This document shows, piece after piece, positions 2,179-19,250 of a stretch of 34,086 nt of DNA; position 1 is the first letter of the stretch; every line of letters begins with the position of its first letter. The stretch lies in the NCBI GenBank assembly GCA_003332265.1, contig QPGA01000042.1:1-34086 (forward strand). The letters run 5' to 3'. This DNA comes from Candidatus Accumulibacter meliphilus (GTDB lineage Bacteria > Pseudomonadota > Gammaproteobacteria > Burkholderiales > Rhodocyclaceae). The position numbers and the translations under genes are program-made. Below the pieces are notes generated by a model. That model was given only the letters and a program-made list of their open reading frames with translations, made no database searches and was not told the origin of the DNA.

Positions 2179-4464
2179 ATGGGGCACAAAAGTCAGCACC
2201 ATCACCCCTCGATGCCACCCATGGCCAACGACGCGCTGAGCGCCGAGCAAGCCATTCGCCAGCGTGCCGAGGAGGCGCTCCGGCAGCAAACCGATCGCGC
2301 ACTGGAAGAAGACGAAAGCCTGTCACACGAAGCGATCCGCGAAGCACTGCTCGAGCTGCGCGTGCATCAGATCGAACTGGAGATGCAGAACGAAGAACTG
2401 CGTCGGGCACAGCTTGAGCTGGAAGCCGCGCGGGCGCGCTATTTCGACATTTATGACCTGGCCCCGGTCGCTTACTGCAGCGTGAGTCAGGCCGGGCTGA
2501 TCCTGGAAGCCAACCTCACCGCGGCGACCCTGCTCGGCGTCGCCCGCGGCGCCCTGGTCAAGCTGCGCTTCAGCCGCTTCATTCGCAAGGCCGACCAGGA
2601 TGTCTTCTACCTGCACCACAAACAGGCCTTGTCAACAGGCCAGGCGCCAGGCTGCGACCTGCGCATGCTGAAGTTTGACGGGCAGCCATTCTGGGCGCAT
2701 CTGGAAACCGCGACGGCGCAGGACGCCGATGGCGCGACGGTGTTGCGCATCGTCATCAGCGACATCACCGAGCGCAAGCGGGCCGACGCCGATCTGCGCA
2801 TTGCCGCAGTCGCCTTCGAATCACAACACAGCATGATGGTCACCAATGCCCACCACCTGATCCTGCGGGTCAACCGGGCGTTCACCGAGGTCACCGGCTA
2901 CGCTGCCGAGGAAGTCATCGGCAAGACTCCCGGCATGCTGTCATCGGGCCTGCACGACGCGCACTTCTTCCGCACAATGTGGAAGACCATTCACAGTACC
3001 GGCATCTGGCAGGGAGAAATTTTTGACCGGCGCAAGAACGGCGAGGTCTATCCGACCTGGCTGACGATTTCTCCGGTGCGCGACGGCGCCGGCACCGTGA
3101 CCCATTACGTGGCCACGCATTTCGACATTACCGAACGAAAGAAAGCGGACCGGAAGATCGCCGAGATGGCTTTCTTCGATATCGTCACCGGGGTGCCGAA
3201 CCGCGCGCTTCTGCTCGATCACATGAAACAGGCGATGACCGTCAGCGAGCGCAACAGGACCTTCGGTGCGCTGCTGTTCATCGACCTCGACCACTTCAAG
3301 ACGCTCAACGATACGCTGGGACATGACCAGGGCGACCGGCTGCTCAAGACCGTCGCCCAGCGTCTCGTCGCGGGCATACGTGAGGGCGATACCGTGGCGC
3401 GACTGGGTGGCGACGAGTTCGTGATCCTCCTGGAGAACCTCAACGCCAACATCGACGAGGCGGCGACGCAGACCGAAATCGTCGGCGAGAAGGTTCTCGC
3501 CGCCCTGGCTCGCCCCTACCTGCTTGGCGCCGTCGATCATCGCGGCACGGCGAGTGTTGGCGCAACCTTGTTCCGCGGGCACGAAACATCGATCGACAAC
3601 ATCTTGAAACAGGCCGACATGGCAATGTACAAGGCCAAGGAAGCGGGTCGCAACAGACTGCATTTCTTCGACCCGACGATGCAGATCCTGGTGCTCAGGC
3701 GCGCCGAACTCGAGGCGAGCCTGCGGGGCGCTCTCCGCGAGAGCCAGCTCGAGCTCCACTATCAGCCGCAGTTCGCCGGCGACGGCAAGCTGATCGGAAG
3801 CGAAGCCCTGTTGCGCTGGCGACACCCTGTGCACGGCACGGTCGCTCCCGCGGAGTTCATTCCGCTTGCCGAACAGACCGGGCTCATTCTGGCGCTGGGG
3901 GACTGGGTTCTCGAAAACGTTTGTAATCAGCTGGCCAAATGGGCCGATCAACTGCCGCTGAACCGGCTCGCGGTGGCGGTGAACGTCAGTGCACGGCAGT
4001 TCCGCGAAGCGGCCTTCGCGGACAAGCTTCTGGCGATCCTCGGTGCGACGGGCGCCAATCCGAAATACTTGACGCTGGAGCTGACGGAGAGCTTGTTAGT
4101 GCATGATGTCGATGATCTGATCGAGAAGGTATCGCGGCTGAAAGCCCGCGGTGTGGGCTTTGCGCTCGACGATTTCGGTACCGGCTATTCGTCGCTGTCC
4201 TATCTGAAGCGCTTGCCGCTCGATCAGGTGAAGATCGACCAGTCCTTCGTGCGTGATGTGCTTGACGACAGCAACGAGGCGGCAATCGCCAGGGGCATCG
4301 TGGCGCTGGCTCACAGCCTGGAGCTGGAGGTGATCGCCGAGGGCGTGGACAGCGAAGCGCAGCGGGACTTTCTGGCGAGTGCCGGCTGCGACGCCTACCA
4401 GGGCTACTTCTTCAGTCAAGCGCTGCCGGTAGACGATTTCGAGGCCTTCGCGCTGCGCGCTTGA
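2179..4464 (+). CDS. PAS-PAS-GGDEF-EAL cyclic-di-GMP signalling protein
   Basis: A 761-residue cytoplasmic protein with no membrane segment visible. An N-terminal coiled coil (about 20-85) is followed by two PAS domains (about 88-200 and 205-320, each ending in a DITERK motif), a diguanylate cyclase domain and a phosphodiesterase domain. The GGDEF motif is intact at residues 410-414, with a product-binding inhibitory site RxxD at 401-404. The EAL motif is intact as EALLRW from residue 542. Further EAL catalytic elements are present: NVSARQF, LELTES, DDFGTGYSS from 664, and VKIDQSF. Both c-di-GMP synthesis and breakdown are therefore possible, probably tuned by PAS ligands. The start lies 4 bases after the broken CheR-PAS frame, suggesting one transcript. 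No clear Shine-Dalgarno precedes it, and ATG 2221 is an alternative start. Confidence 0.92.
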   Translation: MGHKSQHHHPSMPPMANDALSAEQAIRQRAEEALRQQTDRALEEDESLSHEAIREALLELRVHQIELEMQNEELRRAQLELEAARARYFDIYDLAPVAYCSVSQAGLILEANLTAATLLGVARGALVKLRFSRFIRKADQDVFYLHHKQALSTGQAPGCDLRMLKFDGQPFWAHLETATAQDADGATVLRIVISDITERKRADADLRIAAVAFESQHSMMVTNAHHLILRVNRAFTEVTGYAAEEVIGKTPGMLSSGLHDAHFFRTMWKTIHSTGIWQGEIFDRRKNGEVYPTWLTISPVRDGAGTVTHYVATHFDITERKKADRKIAEMAFFDIVTGVPNRALLLDHMKQAMTVSERNRTFGALLFIDLDHFKTLNDTLGHDQGDRLLKTVAQRLVAGIREGDTVARLGGDEFVILLENLNANIDEAATQTEIVGEKVLAALARPYLLGAVDHRGTASVGATLFRGHETSIDNILKQADMAMYKAKEAGRNRLHFFDPTMQILVLRRAELEASLRGALRESQLELHYQPQFAGDGKLIGSEALLRWRHPVHGTVAPAEFIPLAEQTGLILALGDWVLENVCNQLAKWADQLPLNRLAVAVNVSARQFREAAFADKLLAILGATGANPKYLTLELTESLLVHDVDDLIEKVSRLKARGVGFALDDFGTGYSSLSYLKRLPLDQVKIDQSFVRDVLDDSNEAAIARGIVALAHSLELEVIAEGVDSEAQRDFLASAGCDAYQGYFFSQALPVDDFEAFALRA

Positions 4465-8220: not shown

Positions 8221-9570
<1,350 letters not shown>

Positions 9571-10834: not shown

Positions 10835-11701
10835 ATGAAAAAATTGGCATTCATCAAGCGCAGTAACGGCAAACACTGGGTCGGCGATGGCTTCCCGGTC
10901 AAAAGCATTTTTTCCTACAGCGACATCGCCGAGGAAATGTCGCCCTTCCTGTTGCTGGACTACGCCGGGCCGGCCGATTTTCCGCCGACCACGCGCAAGC
11001 TTGGCGTTGGCCAGCACCCGCATCGCGGCTTCGAGACGGTGACCATCGTCTACGCGGGCGGCGTGTCACACCGCGACTCGTCGGGTGGCGGCGGCACGAT
11101 CGGCCCGGGCGATGTGCAGTGGATGACGGCAGCTTCCGGCATTCTTCACGAGGAATTTCATAGCCCGGAATTCGCCGAAAAAGGCGGCGCCTTCGAGATG
11201 GTCCAGCTCTGGGTCAACCTGCCGGCTCAGGACAAAATGTCGGCGCCGGGATATCAGGGCATTACCGCCGGGCAGATTCCGGAAGTGGCGCTTCCCGACC
11301 AGTCTGGTACTGCACGCATCATCGCCGGCCAGTATGGCGACGCAACCGGTCCGGCCCGCAGCTTCACTCCGATGAACGTCTGGGATCTGCGCCTGCAGGC
11401 CGGCCATCGTGTCGCGTTCGAGCTGCCGGCCGGACATACCACGGCGCTCTTCGTGCTGCGCGGTGCCATTCGCCTCAGCGAGAGCCACATGGTGCGGGCC
11501 GCAGAACTGGCCGTCATGGAGCGTGAAGGCTGCCATCTTGAATTCGAGGTTACCGACGACACGACCCTGCTCTTGCTCAACGGCGAACCGCTCGCTGAAC
11601 CTGTCGTCGGCTACGGCCCCTTCGTGATGAATTCGGAGGAGGAAATCGCCCAGGCAATGAATGACTTCAACAGTGGCCATTTCGGACAGATCGGCCATTA
11701 A
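10835..11701 (+). CDS. Pirin family protein
   Basis: A 288-residue bicupin. The metal-binding motif of the N-terminal cupin is present as GQHPHRGFETVT, with further ligands in GILHEEFHSPE. The C-terminal cupin (about 170-285) ends in YGPFVMNSEEEIAQAMNDF, a strongly conserved pirin tail. Bacterial pirins are cytoplasmic iron proteins; some have quercetinase activity and others bind metabolic enzymes, and the sequence does not say which applies here. It is divergent from a LysR regulator. Its TAA stop lies inside the first bases of a dispersed repeat module (11698 onward), so the repeat abuts the coding end. Confidence 0.95.
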   Translation: MKKLAFIKRSNGKHWVGDGFPVKSIFSYSDIAEEMSPFLLLDYAGPADFPPTTRKLGVGQHPHRGFETVTIVYAGGVSHRDSSGGGGTIGPGDVQWMTAASGILHEEFHSPEFAEKGGAFEMVQLWVNLPAQDKMSAPGYQGITAGQIPEVALPDQSGTARIIAGQYGDATGPARSFTPMNVWDLRLQAGHRVAFELPAGHTTALFVLRGAIRLSESHMVRAAELAVMEREGCHLEFEVTDDTTLLLLNGEPLAEPVVGYGPFVMNSEEEIAQAMNDFNSGHFGQIGH

Positions 11702-11776
11702 TGTGAAAGTCGCGCAAGCGACTCACAAACCTCCCTTCTCACCTCGCGGGGGAAGGGTCAGGGGTGAGGCGGGGAA
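11698..11776 (+). repeat. Dispersed repeat module A, diverged single copy
   Basis: It begins ATTAATGTGAAAGTCGCGC at the pirin stop and keeps GCGACTCAC and the CCTCGCGGGGGAAGG segment, but has more mismatches than other copies. No module B follows. Confidence 0.75.
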
Positions 11777-12516: not shown

Positions 12517-13143
12517 ATGCTTTCCATCTACGAGATCAAACCCCGTTTCCAGAGCCTGCTCCGGCCGCTGGCCACGCGATTGGCCGCCGCTGGTGTGACG
12601 GCCAATGCGGTGACGCTGGTGGCGATGGCACTTTCGGTGGCCCTTGGTCTGCTGCTGGCGATTTTTCAGCCCGGGGGGGCGGCGTATCTGGCCTTGCCGA
12701 TCTGGTTGTTTCTGCGCATGGCACTCAATGCCATCGACGGCATGCTGGCGCGCGAGCATGGGCAGAAGTCGACGCTGGGGGCCTATCTCAATGAGCTGAC
12801 TGACGTCATCTCGGATGCGGCGCTCTACCTGCCTTTTGCTTTCGTGGCACCTTTTGGCGCTTTGAGCGTAGGGCTGGTGATCTGGCTGGCGGCGGTATCG
12901 GAGATGGCCGGCGCGCTGGGACCGATGGTCGGGGCGTCGCGCCGTTACGAAGGGCCGATGGGGAAAAGCGACCGGGCTTTCGTGTTTGGCGCACTGGGCC
13001 TGTGGCTGGGGCTGGCGGGGCAGTTGCCGGCCTGGCTGGCCTGGCTGATGCCGGCTATCGCGCTGCTCATGGTGGTGAACATCATCAATCGCGTGCGCGC
13101 CGGCCTGTCCGAGATCCGCAGGCAACAACAAGGAGGAGGGTGA
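12517..13143 (+). CDS. ynbA: CDP-alcohol phosphatidyltransferase (YnbA-like)
   Basis: A 208-residue integral membrane protein with about six hydrophobic segments, starting at ATG 12517 behind AGAAGGGA. It carries the CDP-alcohol phosphotransferase signature from residue 74: DGMLAR, then G88 and D96. Such enzymes join a CDP-activated lipid to an alcohol with loss of CMP. The third acidic residue of the canonical motif is Asn here (N92 in LGAYLNELTDVISD), and an extra Asp follows at D100. From memory, E. coli YnbA has the same L-N-E pattern, so this is a subfamily trait rather than damage. It heads a six-gene operon; the next gene starts 3 bases after its stop. The acceptor alcohol is unknown. 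Confidence 0.85.
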   Translation: MLSIYEIKPRFQSLLRPLATRLAAAGVTANAVTLVAMALSVALGLLLAIFQPGGAAYLALPIWLFLRMALNAIDGMLAREHGQKSTLGAYLNELTDVISDAALYLPFAFVAPFGALSVGLVIWLAAVSEMAGALGPMVGASRRYEGPMGKSDRAFVFGALGLWLGLAGQLPAWLAWLMPAIALLMVVNIINRVRAGLSEIRRQQQGGG

Positions 13144-13145
13144 GG

Positions 13146-14930
13146 ATGGGGATGGCGATGAATGCCATGCATCGACTGAACGAACGTCCGGTGATCGAAA
13201 GCCATTTCGCGACCGACGACGGGGTCGAGCTGTTCTACCGCCACTGGCCGGCCAGCGGCACGCGCCGGGGCACGGTGCTGATGTTCCATCGCGGCCATGA
13301 GCATTCCGGGCGCATGGCACATCTGGTCGATGAACTGGATCTTCCGGATTTCGACGTTTTTGCCTGGGATGCCCGCGGCCATGGCCGCTCGCCTGGCGAG
13401 CGCGGTTTCTCGCCGAGCTTTGGAGCCTCGGTGCGCGATGTGCAGACCTTTGTCGATCATCTTCGCAACGCCCATGACGTGGCGCCGCAGGAGATGGTGG
13501 TGCTGGCCCAGAGCGTGGGGGCGGTGACGGTCGCGACCTGGGCGCACGACTACGCGCCGCAGGTCCGCGCGCTGGTGCTCGCCTCGCCGGCTTTCAAGGT
13601 GAAACTCTACGTGCCTTTCGCGCGGCCGGGCTTGCGTCTGCTGCAGAGGCTGCGCGGCAATTTCTTCGTCAACAGTTATGTGAAGGCGAAATTTCTGACC
13701 CATGATCCTGCGCGGCAGGCCAGCTTTGCTGCCGACCCGCTGATCACGCGCGCCATTTCGGTGCATATCCTGCTCGCCCTGTACGAGGCTGCAGAGCGCG
13801 TGGTGGCCGATGCGGCCGCGATCACCATCCCGACGCAGATGCTGATTTCGGGCGCGGACTGGGTGGTGCATGATCAGCCCCAGCACGATTTCTTTGATCG
13901 CCTCGGCAGCACGGTGAAGGAAAAGCATGTGCTTGAAGGTTTCTTCCACGACACTCTGGGCGAAGCCGATCGGGAGCGGGCGATCGCGCTGGTGCGCGGC
14001 TTCATTCTGCGCCAGTTCGACAGCCCCGCGCCGACGCTGGACCTGAACGATGCCGACAAGGCCGGGACCACTTTCGACGAGGCGCAGACGCTGGCCGCCC
14101 CGCTACCCGAAGGAAGCTTCAAGGGCTGGTGGTGGAAGATGTACCGCAAAAGCCTGCGCTGGGCCGGCATGGTGTCGGATGGCGTGTCCTTGGGGCATCG
14201 CACCGGTTTCGATTCGGGCAGCACGCTCGACTACGTGTATCGCAACGAGGCCAGGGGCGCGGGCTTTATCGGCCGCATGGTGGACCGCAACTACCTCGAC
14301 GCCATCGGCTGGCGCGGCATTCGCCAGCGCAAGGTACATCTCGAGGAACTGATCCGCGACGCCATGGCCCGCTTGCGTGCCGACGACACAGCAGTGCGCG
14401 TGCTCGACATTGCCGCCGGCCACGGCCGCTATGTGCTCGACGCACTGATGGCCGAAGGCACACGTCCGGAAAGCGTGCTGCTGCGCGACTACTCGACCAT
14501 CAACGTGCGCGACGGCCGCCGCCTGATCGCCGAGAAGAACCTGGCCGGCATCGCGCGCTTCGAAGAGGGCGACGCCTTCGATGCCGAGTCGGTGGCCGGC
14601 GCGCAGCCAGGCACCACGATCGGCATCGTCTCCGGCCTGTACGAGCTGTTCCCGTCCAACGACCTGGTTCGTGCTTCTCTGGGCGGCATGGCGAGGGCGG
14701 TGGAGGCGGGCGGTTATTTGATCTACACCGGCCAGCCCTGGCATCCGCAACTGGAGATGATCGCCCGCGCGCTGACCAGCCATCGCCAGGGTGAGCCCTG
14801 GGTGATGCGCCGGCGCACGCAAGCGGAAATGGACCAGCTGGTGCGCCAAGCGGGCTTCGAGAAAATCGGGCAACGCATCGATGAATGGGGCATCTTCACC
14901 GTCTCGATTGCGCGTCGCAAGGCGCCATGA
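13146..14930 (+). CDS. ynbC: Alpha/beta-hydrolase fused to SAM methyltransferase (YnbC-like)
   Basis: A 594-residue fusion, close to the length of E. coli YnbC. The frame is open further upstream, but ATG 13146 follows the upstream stop and a strong AAGGAGGAGG, so it is chosen. Residues about 15-310 are a lysophospholipase-like hydrolase: MFHRGHEHSGR oxyanion loop, nucleophile S123 in LAQSVGAV (first Gly of GxSxG is Ala), an acid in SGADWVVHD and His in GFFHDTLGE. Residues about 390-590 are a class I methyltransferase with motif I LDIAAGHGRY (D421). The substrate is unknown; a hydrolase plus methyltransferase suggests deacylation and methylation of the lipid made by the operon. Its stop overlaps the next start as ATGA. 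Confidence 0.85.
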   Translation: MGMAMNAMHRLNERPVIESHFATDDGVELFYRHWPASGTRRGTVLMFHRGHEHSGRMAHLVDELDLPDFDVFAWDARGHGRSPGERGFSPSFGASVRDVQTFVDHLRNAHDVAPQEMVVLAQSVGAVTVATWAHDYAPQVRALVLASPAFKVKLYVPFARPGLRLLQRLRGNFFVNSYVKAKFLTHDPARQASFAADPLITRAISVHILLALYEAAERVVADAAAITIPTQMLISGADWVVHDQPQHDFFDRLGSTVKEKHVLEGFFHDTLGEADRERAIALVRGFILRQFDSPAPTLDLNDADKAGTTFDEAQTLAAPLPEGSFKGWWWKMYRKSLRWAGMVSDGVSLGHRTGFDSGSTLDYVYRNEARGAGFIGRMVDRNYLDAIGWRGIRQRKVHLEELIRDAMARLRADDTAVRVLDIAAGHGRYVLDALMAEGTRPESVLLRDYSTINVRDGRRLIAEKNLAGIARFEEGDAFDAESVAGAQPGTTIGIVSGLYELFPSNDLVRASLGGMARAVEAGGYLIYTGQPWHPQLEMIARALTSHRQGEPWVMRRRTQAEMDQLVRQAGFEKIGQRIDEWGIFTVSIARRKAP

Positions 14931-16246
14931 ACAGCATCGGCTCCGCTCCGATCGGGCCGATCCGCTGGCAGCACAGCGTCGCCTGGTTGCTGCTGCTGGC
15001 GCCGCTGTTCTTCCTGAGCTACGGCTGGACCAACCAGCTGGCAGCCAGCCGCGGAGTGAGCGCGAGCATCGTCTTCGGCTGGGAGCAGGCGATCCCCTTC
15101 CTGCCCTGGACCATCGTGCCCTACTGGTCCATCGACCTGATGTACGGCTTGTCCTTCCTGGCCTGTCGCACGCCGCGCGAAGTCAATCACCACGGCCTGC
15201 GCCTGCTCAGCGCGCAACTCATCTCGGTGACCTGCTTCGTGCTCTTCCCCTTGCGCTTTTCGGGCGAAAAACCCGCCGCCGACGGTGTCTTCGGCACGCT
15301 TTTCGATGCCCTTGCCGGCTTCGATCTGCCCTACAACCAGGCGCCGTCGCTGCACATCAGTCTGCTGGTGATCATCTGGTGGGTGCTCGTGCGCCGCGCT
15401 TCGCCCGGCCGCCGCATCGTCTGGCATGTGTGGGCGCTGCTGGTGGCGGCGTCGGTGTTGACGACCTGGCAACACCATTTCTTTGACCTGCCCACCGGCC
15501 TGCTGGCGGGCCTGTTGTGCCTGTGGCTGTGGCCCGACCTGGGTAGGCCGCCGCTGTTACCGCCTGGCAAGGGGGAGGGCAGGCGACCGCGGCTGAGCCT
15601 GGGCTATTGTTGCGGCGCCATGATCTGCCTGCTGATGGCGGTGCAGGGCGGCTGGGCGCTGCTGGCCGCGTGGCCGGCGACGGCCCTGGCACTGGTGGCG
15701 GCCAACTACGCCTGGGCCGGCCCCGGCGGCTTTCAGAAGCACGACGGCCGTCAGAGCGTCGCGGTGCGCTGGCTGACGGCGCCCTACCGGCTGGGGGCAT
15801 GGATCAACAGCCGGCTATGGACCTGGCGAAAACCCGAGCCCGATCAGGTCGCCGATGCGGTCTGGCTGGGCCGCCTGCCGACCCCCGCCGAACTGGCCCG
15901 GCAGCGCTTCGATGCCGTCGTCGATGTCACCGCCGAATTCGATACGCCAAGCGGGGCGGCCCGCTCGCACAGCGTGCCGATGCTCGATCTGGCCTTGCCG
16001 TCACTGGCGACCCTGCGCCATGCCGCAGCGACGCTGGACACCGCCGTCGGGAACGGCGGCCGGGTCCTGGTGTGCTGTGCGCTCGGTTATTCGCGCAGCG
16101 CGCTCACCGTGGCTGCATGGCTGCTGCACAGCGGTCGCTGCGATTCAGTCGAAGCGGCGATCGCCCGAATCAGGGCGGCGCGACCACAGGTCGTGTTCTC
16201 CGAGGCTCACCTGACGCTGCTCAGGGACTTGTCCGATGCTCACTGA
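14927..16246 (+). CDS. ynbD: PAP2-like phosphatase fused to dual-specificity phosphatase (YnbD-like)
   Basis: A 439-residue membrane protein starting at ATG 14927, which overlaps the previous stop (ATGA). Residues about 15-270 form several membrane helices with PAP2-type motifs: PSLH (H143) for C2 and H183-x3-D187 in TTWQHHFFDLPTG for C3. The first motif KxxxxxxRP is not visible, as in inositolphosphotransferase-like PAP2 relatives. The C-terminus (about 310-439) is a cytosolic dual-specificity phosphatase with the Cx5R loop C384-ALGYS-R390. The residue before the catalytic Cys is Cys383 instead of the usual His. E. coli YnbD has the same architecture. Likely roles are lipid phosphate removal or head-group transfer. 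Confidence 0.85.
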   Translation: MNSIGSAPIGPIRWQHSVAWLLLLAPLFFLSYGWTNQLAASRGVSASIVFGWEQAIPFLPWTIVPYWSIDLMYGLSFLACRTPREVNHHGLRLLSAQLISVTCFVLFPLRFSGEKPAADGVFGTLFDALAGFDLPYNQAPSLHISLLVIIWWVLVRRASPGRRIVWHVWALLVAASVLTTWQHHFFDLPTGLLAGLLCLWLWPDLGRPPLLPPGKGEGRRPRLSLGYCCGAMICLLMAVQGGWALLAAWPATALALVAANYAWAGPGGFQKHDGRQSVAVRWLTAPYRLGAWINSRLWTWRKPEPDQVADAVWLGRLPTPAELARQRFDAVVDVTAEFDTPSGAARSHSVPMLDLALPSLATLRHAAATLDTAVGNGGRVLVCCALGYSRSALTVAAWLLHSGRCDSVEAAIARIRAARPQVVFSEAHLTLLRDLSDAH

Positions 16247-16679
16247 CGATGACTTCACGCCGCGCCTCGCGGCCGATGCCGCCGTCACCGCGGGTCTCCT
16301 CGACAGCGGTCGACCCCTTGCGTGGGTGAGCGGCACGATGCTGCTGATCATGGCCGTTGCCTGGCTGATGGGGCATCCGGTGGCTTTGCCGGCGTTCGTC
16401 GGCGCTGTCCTGATGGCAACGGTGCAGGGGGCTTTTGCCCAGCGCGTACGCTTCGACGCCGGAATCTTTCGCTTCTGGGCATCGCGCTGGCATCATCCGC
16501 TTTCACCGGCTGCCGATCTGGCGGCGTTCGATGTGCGTGTCGGTCGACAGGCGCCGCCGGCCGCTTCGGTCGAAGCGGATCTGGCCGAACGGCGACGCGG
16601 CGCGATCCGGCTGCTGATGTGGCAGGCTGCCTGCACTACCCTGCAACTCGGGTTCACCGCCATTGCCCTTTGGCCCTGA
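16236..16679 (+). CDS. Small membrane protein of the lipid operon, unknown function
   Basis: A 147-residue protein whose ATG lies 11 bases inside the end of the upstream phosphatase gene, indicating translational coupling. It has hydrophobic segments at about 30-45 and 48-65 (WVSGTMLLIMAVAWLMG, then ALPAFVGAVLMA) and one at the C-terminus (TTLQLGFTAIALWP). Between these is a soluble stretch with many Arg and Asp. I do not recognise a family, and E. coli ynbABCD has no equivalent that I know. Position and coupling suggest an accessory subunit for the phosphatase or acyltransferase. Confidence 0.75.
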   Translation: MLTDDDFTPRLAADAAVTAGLLDSGRPLAWVSGTMLLIMAVAWLMGHPVALPAFVGAVLMATVQGAFAQRVRFDAGIFRFWASRWHHPLSPAADLAAFDVRVGRQAPPAASVEADLAERRRGAIRLLMWQAACTTLQLGFTAIALWP

Positions 16680-16706
16680 CGGCACTTTTTTGCGAAGCGA
16701 CGAACG

Positions 16707-17327
16707 ATGATCGAAAAACTGTTTGGCCTGCTGTTGTGCAACTTCGCCAAGCTGCTCACCGGCGTGCGCCCGCTGTGGCAGAACTGCGAGCCCGAAGCGA
16801 AGCTGCGCGTGTACTTTGCCAACCACCGCAGCCATGGCGATTTCGTCTTGATCTGGGCGGCGTTGCCGGCTGTGTTGCGCCGTCAGACGCGCCCGGTCGC
16901 CGGCGCCGACTACTGGCTCGATAGCCGCTTCAAGACCTGGCTGATCAACAAGGTCTTCCACGCCGTGCTGGTGGATCGCCGGCCTGGGCGGGACGGCCCT
17001 GATCCGGTCGAGCAGATGGCCGCTGCGCTACAAGCCGGCAACTCCCTGATCTTGTTTCCCGAGGGCACGCGCAATCTCGACGAGGCGCTGCTCCCTTTCA
17101 AGAGCGGCATTTTCCATCTCGCGCAAGCGATGCCGTCGGTGGAGTTTGTGCCGGTGTGGATTGAGAACCTCGGCCGGGTGATGCCCAAGGGTGCGATCGT
17201 GCCGGTGCCACTTCTCTGCACGCTGACCTTTGGCGCACCTCTGACGCTGACCCCGGGAGAAGCCAAGGCCGAATTCCTTGCCCGCGCCCGCCACGCGCTA
17301 CTCGACCTCGCCCCGCCGGCGAACTGA
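16707..17327 (+). CDS. PlsC-like 1-acylglycerol-3-phosphate acyltransferase family protein
   Basis: A 206-residue LPLAT-family enzyme. The catalytic HX4D motif is NHRSHGD (H40, D45), and the acceptor-binding motif is FPEGTR at 117-122, preceded by VLVDRRPGRD. The N-terminus has a hydrophobic helix (LFGLLLCNFAKLL) that probably anchors it to the inner membrane. Such enzymes transfer an acyl chain to a lysophospholipid or glycerol phosphate, here perhaps feeding phosphatidic acid to the CdsA-like enzyme encoded next (14-base gap). It is shorter than typical PlsC (about 245 residues) but has all motifs. The ribosome binding site is weak. Confidence 0.88.
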   Translation: MIEKLFGLLLCNFAKLLTGVRPLWQNCEPEAKLRVYFANHRSHGDFVLIWAALPAVLRRQTRPVAGADYWLDSRFKTWLINKVFHAVLVDRRPGRDGPDPVEQMAAALQAGNSLILFPEGTRNLDEALLPFKSGIFHLAQAMPSVEFVPVWIENLGRVMPKGAIVPVPLLCTLTFGAPLTLTPGEAKAEFLARARHALLDLAPPAN

Positions 17328-17340
17328 CCCAGGAGCCGCG

Positions 17341-18282
17341 ATGAGCCCCGATCACACCCTGTTTAATGTGTTTGCTGCTGTTTTCGCCGCACTGGCTGTC
17401 GCCAGCGGCATTGCTGCCGGACTCAAGTGGCGGCTGGCGGCGGGCGCCTCTAGCGTTGTCATCGACAACCTCAACGCGCGCATCAACGCCTGGTGGTGGA
17501 TGGTCGGTGTACTGGCGGTGGCCTTCTGGATCGGCGAGGGCGGCATCATCGTCCTCTTCGGGCTCATTTCCTTCCAGGCGCTGCGCGAGTACATCTCGCT
17601 CACCCATACCCGGCGCGGCGACCACCACGCGCTGATGTGGTGTTTCTTCTTCTTTCTGCCCGCCCAGTACCTGCTCATCGCCATCGACTGGTACGGACTG
17701 TTCAGCATCCTGATCCCGGTGTACGCCTTCCTGCTGCTGCCGATCTCGGCCACCTTGTGCAGCGATGCCGAGCGCTTTCTCGAGCGTGCCGCCAAGGTGC
17801 AGTGGGGGTTGATGATCTGCGTGTATTGCATTTCGCACGTGCCGGCGCTGCTGACGCTGGAGATTCCCGGGTTTTTCGGCCGCAACGCGCAGCTGATCAT
17901 CTTCCTGGTGCTCACCGTGCAGTCGAGCGACGTGTTTCAGTACGTGTGCGGCAAGCTCTTTGGCAAACGCAAGCTGGCACCGGCGATCTCCCCGTCGAAG
18001 ACCCTCGAAGGGCTGGTCGGTGGCCTGCTCACCTCGACCGTCCTCGGTGCCGCCCTGTACTGGCTGACGCCTTTCAACGTCTGGCAGGCGGCCCTGGTGG
18101 CGCTGACCATCAACATCGTCGGCTTCTTCGGTGGCTTCGTGCTCTCGGCCATCAAGCGCGACCGCGGTGTAAAGGACTGGGGTACGCTCATCGAAGGCCA
18201 TGGCGGCATGCTCGACCGTGTCGATTCGATCAGCTTTTCGGCGCCGATCTTCTTTCACATCGTGCGTTACTGGTGGGTGTGA
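17341..18282 (+). CDS. ynbB: CdsA-like phosphatidate cytidylyltransferase (YnbB-like)
   Basis: A 313-residue protein with about eight membrane helices, starting at ATG 17341 after CCAGGAGCC. The CDS signature is complete near the C-terminus: SAIKRDRGVKDWG, then EGHGGMLDRVDS, with SPSKTLEG in the preceding loop. It should convert phosphatidic acid and CTP to CDP-diacylglycerol, the substrate of the CDP-alcohol transferase that heads the operon. E. coli YnbB is similar in size. It closes the operon; a truncated ORF follows 13 bases later. A housekeeping CdsA would be expected elsewhere, so this copy is probably dedicated to the operon's product. Confidence 0.88.
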   Translation: MSPDHTLFNVFAAVFAALAVASGIAAGLKWRLAAGASSVVIDNLNARINAWWWMVGVLAVAFWIGEGGIIVLFGLISFQALREYISLTHTRRGDHHALMWCFFFFLPAQYLLIAIDWYGLFSILIPVYAFLLLPISATLCSDAERFLERAAKVQWGLMICVYCISHVPALLTLEIPGFFGRNAQLIIFLVLTVQSSDVFQYVCGKLFGKRKLAPAISPSKTLEGLVGGLLTSTVLGAALYWLTPFNVWQAALVALTINIVGFFGGFVLSAIKRDRGVKDWGTLIEGHGGMLDRVDSISFSAPIFFHIVRYWWV

Positions 18283-18885: not shown

Positions 18886-19003
18886 CGCCTTGCAGTCGAC
18901 CGAAAATCCGGCGCAATCTGGCAGGTTCTTTTCCGGCAATCGCCTAAATCCGGCGGCATCGGGGGGCGACATCCCTTTTTGGTTGCGGCCAACGGCCGCG
19001 CTA

Positions 19004-19250
19004 ACGGTCATGACATGTGCGGACACCCCAAGTCATGAAAGTCATGACCGTTTCCCTCTTCCCCTGACCCTTCTCCCGCGAGGGGAGACGGGAGTTTCGC
19101 GAGTCGCGTGCGCGACTTTCACATTAACGGTCATGACAGGTGCGGACACCCCAAGTCATGAAAGTCATGACCGTTTCCCTCTTCTCCTGGCCCTTCTCCC
19201 GCAAGGGGAGACGGGAGTTTCGTGAGTCGGTTGCGCGACTTTCACATTAA
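19004..19250 (-). repeat. Dispersed two-module repeat, two tandem copies in reverse orientation
   Basis: B-arms ACGGTCATGAC/GTCATGACCGT occur at 19004-19014 with 19041-19051 and at 19127-19137 with 19164-19174. Each is followed by the reverse of module A, ending in GACTTTCACATTAA at about 19128 and 19250. The period is about 123 bp. The orientation is opposite to the copies at 4547, 8123 and 11698. Module A faces the 3' end of the minus-strand lipoprotein gene, 55 bp away. Confidence 0.85.

What the first reader, a model, noticed from the sequence alone, without database searches (positions are those of the whole stretch)
12517..18282. Six-gene ynb-like operon that could make an undefined polar lipid
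The sequence shows, in one tightly coupled plus-strand unit, a CDP-alcohol phosphatidyltransferase, hydrolase-methyltransferase fusion, PAP2-DSP phosphatase fusion, small membrane protein, LPLAT acyltransferase and CdsA-like enzyme. Overlaps (ATGA; 11 bases) and gaps of 3-27 bases indicate co-translation. Known: E. coli ynbABCD has four of these families and its product is not established. Inference: acylation, CDP activation, head-group transfer, dephosphorylation and then deacylation/methylation would be a near-complete branch pathway, separate from housekeeping phospholipid synthesis.
Basis: partly seen in the sequence, partly recalled or inferred. Interest (0 to 1): 0.78.

Follow-up and report, generated by a model that had tools for sequence, protein, structure and literature searches.

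The report
arc1/ynb lipid-synthesis defence operon
A bacterium related to Accumulibacter carries a six-gene operon that looks like a private assembly line for an unidentified membrane lipid; the same six genes in the same order help Pseudomonas survive lipid-cutting toxins fired by rival bacteria, and E. coli keeps a shorter, unexplained version.

Summary
The six genes are real and at the stated coordinates. The unit is the ortholog of Pseudomonas aeruginosa arc1A-F (PA2541-PA2536), a Gac/Rsm-induced cluster already shown to protect against T6SS attack, including lipase effectors. E. coli ynbABCD is a four-gene relative. The identification rests on published PA2541 and PA2536 primers whose start codons are the first codons of genes 1 and 6 of the same six-gene order. 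The order is kept in 97 of 108 loci read, and housekeeping cdsA and pgsA lie elsewhere in this genome. Two things go beyond the reading. (1) Gene 1 belongs to a CDP-alcohol phosphotransferase subfamily whose signature aspartates 1 and 3 are Asn (118 of 119 and 119 of 119 loci), so the assumed head-group chemistry is not assured. (2) The hydrolase-methyltransferase, PAP2-DSP and small protein are add-ons: an acyltransferase + CdsA-like pair recurs, often with Asn-type transferases of two classes. Best model: an inducible dedicated phospholipid branch that hardens or rebuilds the membrane. New member of a known kind, with an unusual enzyme signature.

The parts
12517..13143 (+). arc1A/ynbA: CDP-alcohol phosphotransferase, Asn-Asn subfamily (N71, N92 in place of signature Asp 1 and 3; D74, E93, D96, D100 kept)
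   Evidence: Pfam PF01066 above cut-off; motif counts over 119 loci; PIPS-type PDB relatives
13146..14930 (+). arc1B/ynbC: monoacylglycerol-lipase-like alpha/beta hydrolase fused to Methyltransf_20; S123/D238/H268 and the Gly/Asp of the SAM motif kept in 109 of 109 loci
14927..16246 (+). arc1C/ynbD: PAP2-type membrane domain (His-His-Asp kept in 105 of 105, C3 Arg absent) + DSP phosphatase (Cys-x5-Arg in 102 of 105, 3 gaps)
16236..16679 (+). arc1D: small protein, two predicted TM helices, conserved by position and weakly by sequence; in the loci read, seen only with the PAP2-DSP gene
16707..17327 (+). arc1E: LPLAT acyltransferase, His and Asp of the NHxSHGD motif in 108 of 109 (1 unread), FPEGTR motif kept
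17341..18282 (+). arc1F/ynbB: CdsA-like CTP transferase, KR..KD..HGG..DR.D residues kept in 110 of 110 loci

Best explanation
The operon is the ortholog of arc1A-F: an inducible, dedicated lipid-synthesis branch. LPLAT makes phosphatidic acid (or a variant), the CdsA-like enzyme activates it to a CDP-lipid, and the Asn-Asn CDP-alcohol transferase moves the phosphatidyl group to an acceptor that probably carries a phosphate; the DSP domain then removes that phosphate. The PAP2 domain, the MGL-like hydrolase and the methyltransferase tailor the product. The resulting non-housekeeping phospholipid makes the membrane more resistant to, or quicker to recover from, phospholipase effectors of rival bacteria. 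Shown here: gene content, order, catalytic motifs, housekeeping copies elsewhere, identity with arc1. Published for Pseudomonas: induction and defence. Inferred: every reaction step, the product, and that induction and defence hold in this organism.
For: Published PA2541-start and PA2536-start primers contain the first codons of genes 1 and 6 of an ACDSLB operon, found in one of 25 genomes of that genus. Order kept in 97 of 108 loci with variable flanks. Catalytic residues of C, D, L and B are kept (counts in parts). Housekeeping cdsA/pgsA elsewhere. In the phylum sample 35 of 37 genomes with a YnbA-type gene also hold a YnbB-type CdsA (E <= 1e-65), including the 3 C-bearing genomes where it is not beside gene 1; 68 of 398 genomes hold one overall. 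Published: a second deletion (PA2536) on top of PA2541 adds nothing, basal expression is very low and Gac/Rsm-inducible (PMC8926400 sections 5-6); arc1A loss raises sensitivity to lipase effectors TseL and Tle1 (PMC12663445 passages).
Against: No lipid product is reported in the passages and sections read. Two signature Asp of gene 1 are Asn. None of the single B. thailandensis effector mutations tested relieved the arc1 defect, and only one arc1 gene passed the cut-off in the Tle3 screen; the lipase role is called auxiliary to arc3A. E. coli ynbB deletion alone has no phospholipid or MPIase phenotype, and E. coli has no LPLAT or small protein in its unit. In 12 of 20 LPLAT + YnbB-type pairs fetched no Asn-type transferase was seen, so that pair can serve without gene 1. 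arc3A (PF10101) was not found in the window's genome, 91% complete. No induction data outside Pseudomonas were seen.
Confidence: 0.6

Rival explanations
1. Emergency phosphatidylglycerol supply: a second, inducible LPLAT-CdsA-PgsA-PGP phosphatase line that refills ordinary PG after phospholipase damage.
For: Ting et al. note four products with homology to PG-synthesis enzymes. Two Arg that bind the acceptor phosphate in PIPS (R155, R195) align one column from, and with, conserved R153 and R192 of gene 1 (Arg in 117 of 119, 2 gaps), and a phosphatase is encoded.
Against: Gene 1 matches archaetidylinositol-phosphate and PIP synthase models in 17 of 17 members and pgsA in 7 of 17 (E <= 0.001); Asn at two metal positions; no need for a methyltransferase.
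Confidence: 0.2
2. Lysolipid clean-up cycle: LPLAT re-acylates and the MGL-like hydrolase destroys lysolipids made by phospholipases; genes 1 and 6 only recycle phosphatidic acid.
For: Hydrolase is nearest monoacylglycerol lipases among solved structures; arc1A contributes to lipase defence.
Against: Gene 1 (PA2541) was the deleted, strongly hit gene and PA2536 added nothing on top; three-gene versions without the hydrolase exist.
Confidence: 0.12
3. Glycolipid (MPIase-like) backup: the YnbB-type enzyme feeds CDP-DAG into GlcNAc-PP-DAG.
For: YnbB overproduction raises MPIase in E. coli; described as a backup (PMC6362211, PMC7018664 passages).
Against: Explains only gene 6; ynbB deletion does not significantly change MPIase; none of the six products matched a glycosyltransferase family.
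Confidence: 0.05

Closest known systems
Pseudomonas aeruginosa arc1A-F (PA2541-PA2536), antagonism resistance cluster 1
   Same: Same six families, same order and strand; primer-anchored starts of genes 1 and 6
   Different: The window's genome has no PF10101 (arc3A) match; regulation here unknown
E. coli K-12 ynbABCD (b1408-b1411)
   Same: YnbA, C, D and B families, Asn-Asn motif in YnbA
   Different: Order A-B-C-D; no LPLAT or small protein in the E. coli unit
Mycobacterial PIP synthase PgsA1 and archaeal AF2299 (CDP-alcohol phosphotransferases)
   Same: Best solved relatives by profile; D2, D4 and at least one phosphate-site Arg kept
   Different: D1 and D3 are Asn; R94 (inositol-phosphate) is V/I/L/M; S132 and K135 are not kept in my reading of the alignment
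Three-gene units with a second Asn-Asn CDP-alcohol transferase class (motif CNxxDGxVAxE...N[ED]xPDR), found here
   Same: Same LPLAT and CdsA-like families beside, or one small gap from, an Asn-Asn transferase in 7 of 8 loci
   Different: No hydrolase-methyltransferase, PAP2-DSP or small protein seen in the unit; Arg follows D4

Membership tests
arc1A-F | six families in the order A-C-D-S-L-B on one strand | tested here: met
arc1A-F | PA2541 is gene 1 and PA2536 is gene 6 | tested here: met
   primer pieces for both starts match exactly and their ATGs are the first codons of A and B; of 8 primer pieces tried 5 matched in the stretch and 3 did not
arc1A-F | Gac/Rsm-induced, defends against T6SS | not testable with these tools
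   published for P. aeruginosa
E. coli ynbABCD | four families adjacent | tested here: met
   in the window S and L stand between D and B
E. coli ynbABCD | same gene order | tested here: not met
   ABCD against ACDSLB
CDP-alcohol phosphotransferase | Pfam PF01066 above cut-off | tested here: met
   32.9 bits, cut-off 22
CDP-alcohol phosphotransferase | four signature Asp (metal ligands D68, D71, D89, D93 in PIPS) | tested here: not met
   positions 1 and 3 are Asn; the other two CDP-AP genes of the genome have Asp
PIP/archaetidylinositol-phosphate synthase | NCBIfam cut-off, and a basic residue after D4 | tested here: not met
   67.6 of 180 and 51.4 of 170 bits for the window protein; V/I/L/M at position 97 in 118 of 119, gap in 1
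PAP2 lipid phosphatase | His-His-Asp core and Arg of the C3 motif (motif recalled) | tested here: inconclusive
   H157, H197, D201 kept in 105 of 105; the Arg position is V (103), I (1) or T (1); at E <= 1 PAP2 matches 13, PAP2_3 12 and PAP2_C 5 of 15 members

The most novel reading that the evidence does not exclude
Asn-Asn CDP-alcohol transferases are a distinct enzyme class with a rebuilt metal site. They evolved with a private acyltransferase and CDP-lipid synthase and make a phospholipid not yet described, used as an inducible shield against interbacterial phospholipases; E. coli ynbABCD is a reduced form.
Probability: 0.35. Interest if true: 0.78.

Novelty: new member of a known kind. 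Interest (0 to 1): 0.52.

Why it matters
It joins two separate stories, the orphan ynbABCD operon of E. coli and the arc1 defence cluster of Pseudomonas, whose chemistry is unknown in the papers read. That makes both testable in E. coli K-12. The Asn-Asn signature shared by two transferase classes that travel with the same acyltransferase and CdsA-like families is a concrete handle on the missing lipid. I did not find the ynb-arc1 link in print; this covers only the open-access library searched (listings), and 'ynb' occurs 0 times in the main texts of PMC8926400 and PMC12663445.

Tried and rejected
Sequence-only PDB searches of these two domains gave nothing firm (best E 0.053 and 0.0014). Inositol-phosphate as acceptor: considered because of the best family model, lowered because the residue after D4 is not basic in YnbA; in the second Asn-Asn class it is Arg (8 of 8), so there inositol-phosphate is not disfavoured on that ground. 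A flanking inverted repeat as an element boundary: rejected, the 70-base repeat has 60 matches across the genome. Own-genome arc3A: none found. Flank genes as extra pathway members: no non-operon cluster in more than 5 of 27 loci, by a crude ORF choice and single-linkage clustering; ten neighbours from six of the eight three-gene units showed no shared family. A hydropathy count for membrane orientation of the PAP2-DSP protein was uninformative.
Full report
What is there. Six plus-strand ORFs lie at 12517-18282. Their families are CDP-alcohol transferase (A), hydrolase-methyltransferase (C), PAP2-DSP (D), a small membrane protein (S), LPLAT (L) and CdsA-like (B). Letters A-D follow the E. coli ynb names. 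Spacing is tight: gap 2, ATGA overlap, 11-base overlap, gaps 27 and 13. The nearest named matches of protein C are an Accumulibacter MAG (90% in the best segment) and Azoarcus sp. L1K30 (86%).

Separate from housekeeping. The genome has two CTP_transf_1 genes, three PF01066 genes and five PF01553 genes, the operon's own included. The other cdsA sits in uppS-cdsA-dxr-rseP and one other PF01066 gene lies beside uvrC, as pgsA usually does (that usual place is recalled).

Conservation. Methyltransf_20 occurs in 27 of 398 genomes sampled from the phylum, the window's own among them. Order ACDSLB holds in 97 of 108. The other eleven: 2 with A inverted and no L/B beside it, 2 ACLB, 1 AC, 1 with L/B divergent, 4 on contigs of under 8 kb (2 ACD, 1 ACDS, 1 BLACD), and E. 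coli ABCD. The loci were chosen for C and are not independent: some are the same or near-identical strains (for example L047 and L100), and the S threshold was permissive (8 bits). S is present in 101 of the 105 loci with D; the 4 without it are 3 short contigs and E. coli. It is absent from the 3 loci that lack D. Flanking genes differ: no non-operon cluster occurs in more than 5 of 27 loci.

Identity with arc1. A paper search for the PAO1 tags found eLife 2022 (PMC8926400), which names PA2541-36 arc1A-F (sections 5 and 6 read in full; other passages). I recalled the PA2541-PA2536 annotations and then tested them. The primer piece at the PA2541 start matches 1 of 25 genomes of the right genus. 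In that stretch its ATG is the first codon of A, and the ATG of the PA2536 start piece is the first codon of B, in an ACDSLB operon. Of 8 primer pieces 5 match exactly and 3 do not, so the genome is close to PAO1 rather than shown to be it. The paper says five of six products relate to phospholipid metabolism, four to phosphatidylglycerol synthesis; basal expression is very low and Gac/Rsm-inducible; deleting a second arc1 gene adds nothing; the defect was not relieved by any single attacker-effector mutation tested, and arc1 is said to serve a broader role. PMC12663445 (passages only) reports that arc1A loss raises sensitivity to lipase effectors, with an auxiliary role beside arc3A. PMC11888443 mentions arc1 once (one passage). 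Prior work on E. coli YnbB: CdsA paralogue, makes CDP-DAG in vitro, cannot replace cdsA, overproduction raises MPIase, deletion has no marked effect (PMC6362211 and PMC7018664, passages).

The unusual transferase. Across 119 loci with A (the 108 above, 10 without C, and the primer-matched Pseudomonas genome), signature position 1 is Asn in 118 and Ala in 1, position 3 is Asn in 119, the next residue is Glu in 119, positions 2 and 4 are Asp in 119 and 118 (1 gap). The one Ala (L160) also lost the AR arginine and stands without B or L. In PIP synthase these four positions bind the two metals, D89 (position 3) can bridge them, D93 (position 4) is the proposed base and R94 is crucial for inositol-phosphate (PMC6506517 and PMC4634129, passages). 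By the profile alignment the equivalents here are N71, D74, N92, D96 and a hydrophobic residue. R195 aligns with R192; R155 lies one column from R153, so that equivalence is approximate; both are Arg in 117 of 119 (2 gaps). My reading: a phosphorylated acceptor is likely, inositol-phosphate is not. The other two CDP-AP genes of this genome and two distant ones have Asp at both places.

Modules. Of 37 genomes with A at 160 bits or more, 27 have C and 10 do not. In 8 of those 10, A stands with L and B and without C, D or S; one has a broken A and a B fragment, one has A alone. Ten weaker A-like genes were read: 2 have Asp, 8 are a second Asn-Asn class (39-70 bits). Around those 8, L and B are beside it in 7 (in L179 and L180 after a gap of about 0.4 kb) and not in L174, whose genome has an L+B pair elsewhere. 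Seen from B: 69 YnbB-type places in 68 of 398 genomes (E <= 1e-65). For 44 a CDP-AP hit (a capped list) lies within a few kb, by my comparison of the two lists; I fetched 20 of the other 25. L is beside B in 20 of 20 (in two pieces in L200); an Asn-Asn transferase is also there in 7, a fragment in 1, none in 12. So L+B is the most stable pair, an Asn-Asn transferase is a frequent but not constant partner, and C, D and S are additions. Of the 37 genomes with A, 35 hold a YnbB-type gene somewhere, including the three C-bearing genomes whose A/C locus lacks it (G043, G253, G296); the two without are the one with the broken A and the one with A alone (G110, G287). These are raw counts, not corrected for relatedness.

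The tailoring enzymes. The hydrolase is nearest monoacylglycerol lipases. The methyltransferase has no firm solved relative. The PAP2 part keeps its His-His-Asp but not the C3 Arg, and matches PAP2, PAP2_3 and PAP2_C models weakly; the last two hold AUR1- and sphingomyelin-synthase-type transferases (recalled), so transfer rather than hydrolysis is possible. The DSP Cys and Arg are kept in 102 of 105 loci (3 gaps). That the DSP domain faces the cytoplasm is inference; a hydropathy count was uninformative for this protein.

Mechanism and judgement. I take the operon as a dedicated, inducible phospholipid branch used against phospholipase attack (0.6). The arc1 identity itself I hold at about 0.9. 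Product, acceptor and order of steps are not known. The most novel reading is that Asn-Asn transferases form a separate class with a rebuilt metal site and an undescribed product (0.35).

Noticed in passing
window 11695-11764, 19002-19247: A 123-base repeat in tandem at 19002-19247, with an inverted 70-base copy of part of it at 11695-11764, lies on both sides of the operon; the 70-base stretch has 60 matches across the genome, so it is a dispersed repeat.
   Followed up: yes
L173, L175-L186, L195: A second class of CDP-alcohol transferases with Asn at signature positions 1 and 3 sits beside LPLAT and CdsA-like genes; function unknown.
   Followed up: partly
L187-L189, L191-L194, L196-L200: LPLAT plus YnbB-type CdsA pairs without any Asn-type transferase within the 9 kb read: a two-gene unit of unknown purpose.
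   Followed up: no
L159 and L160: A decayed unit (A with a stop, B fragment) and a lone aberrant A, consistent with loss after the partners go.
   Followed up: no
L154:861-1397: A VTT-domain (DedA-like) protein, under Pfam's cut-off (29 of 33.9 bits), next to one three-gene unit; seen in one locus only.
   Followed up: no
window 8224-9540: IS110-family transposase upstream of the operon.
   Followed up: no
window 2179-4461: PAS-GGDEF-EAL protein with both cyclase and phosphodiesterase domains.
   Followed up: no
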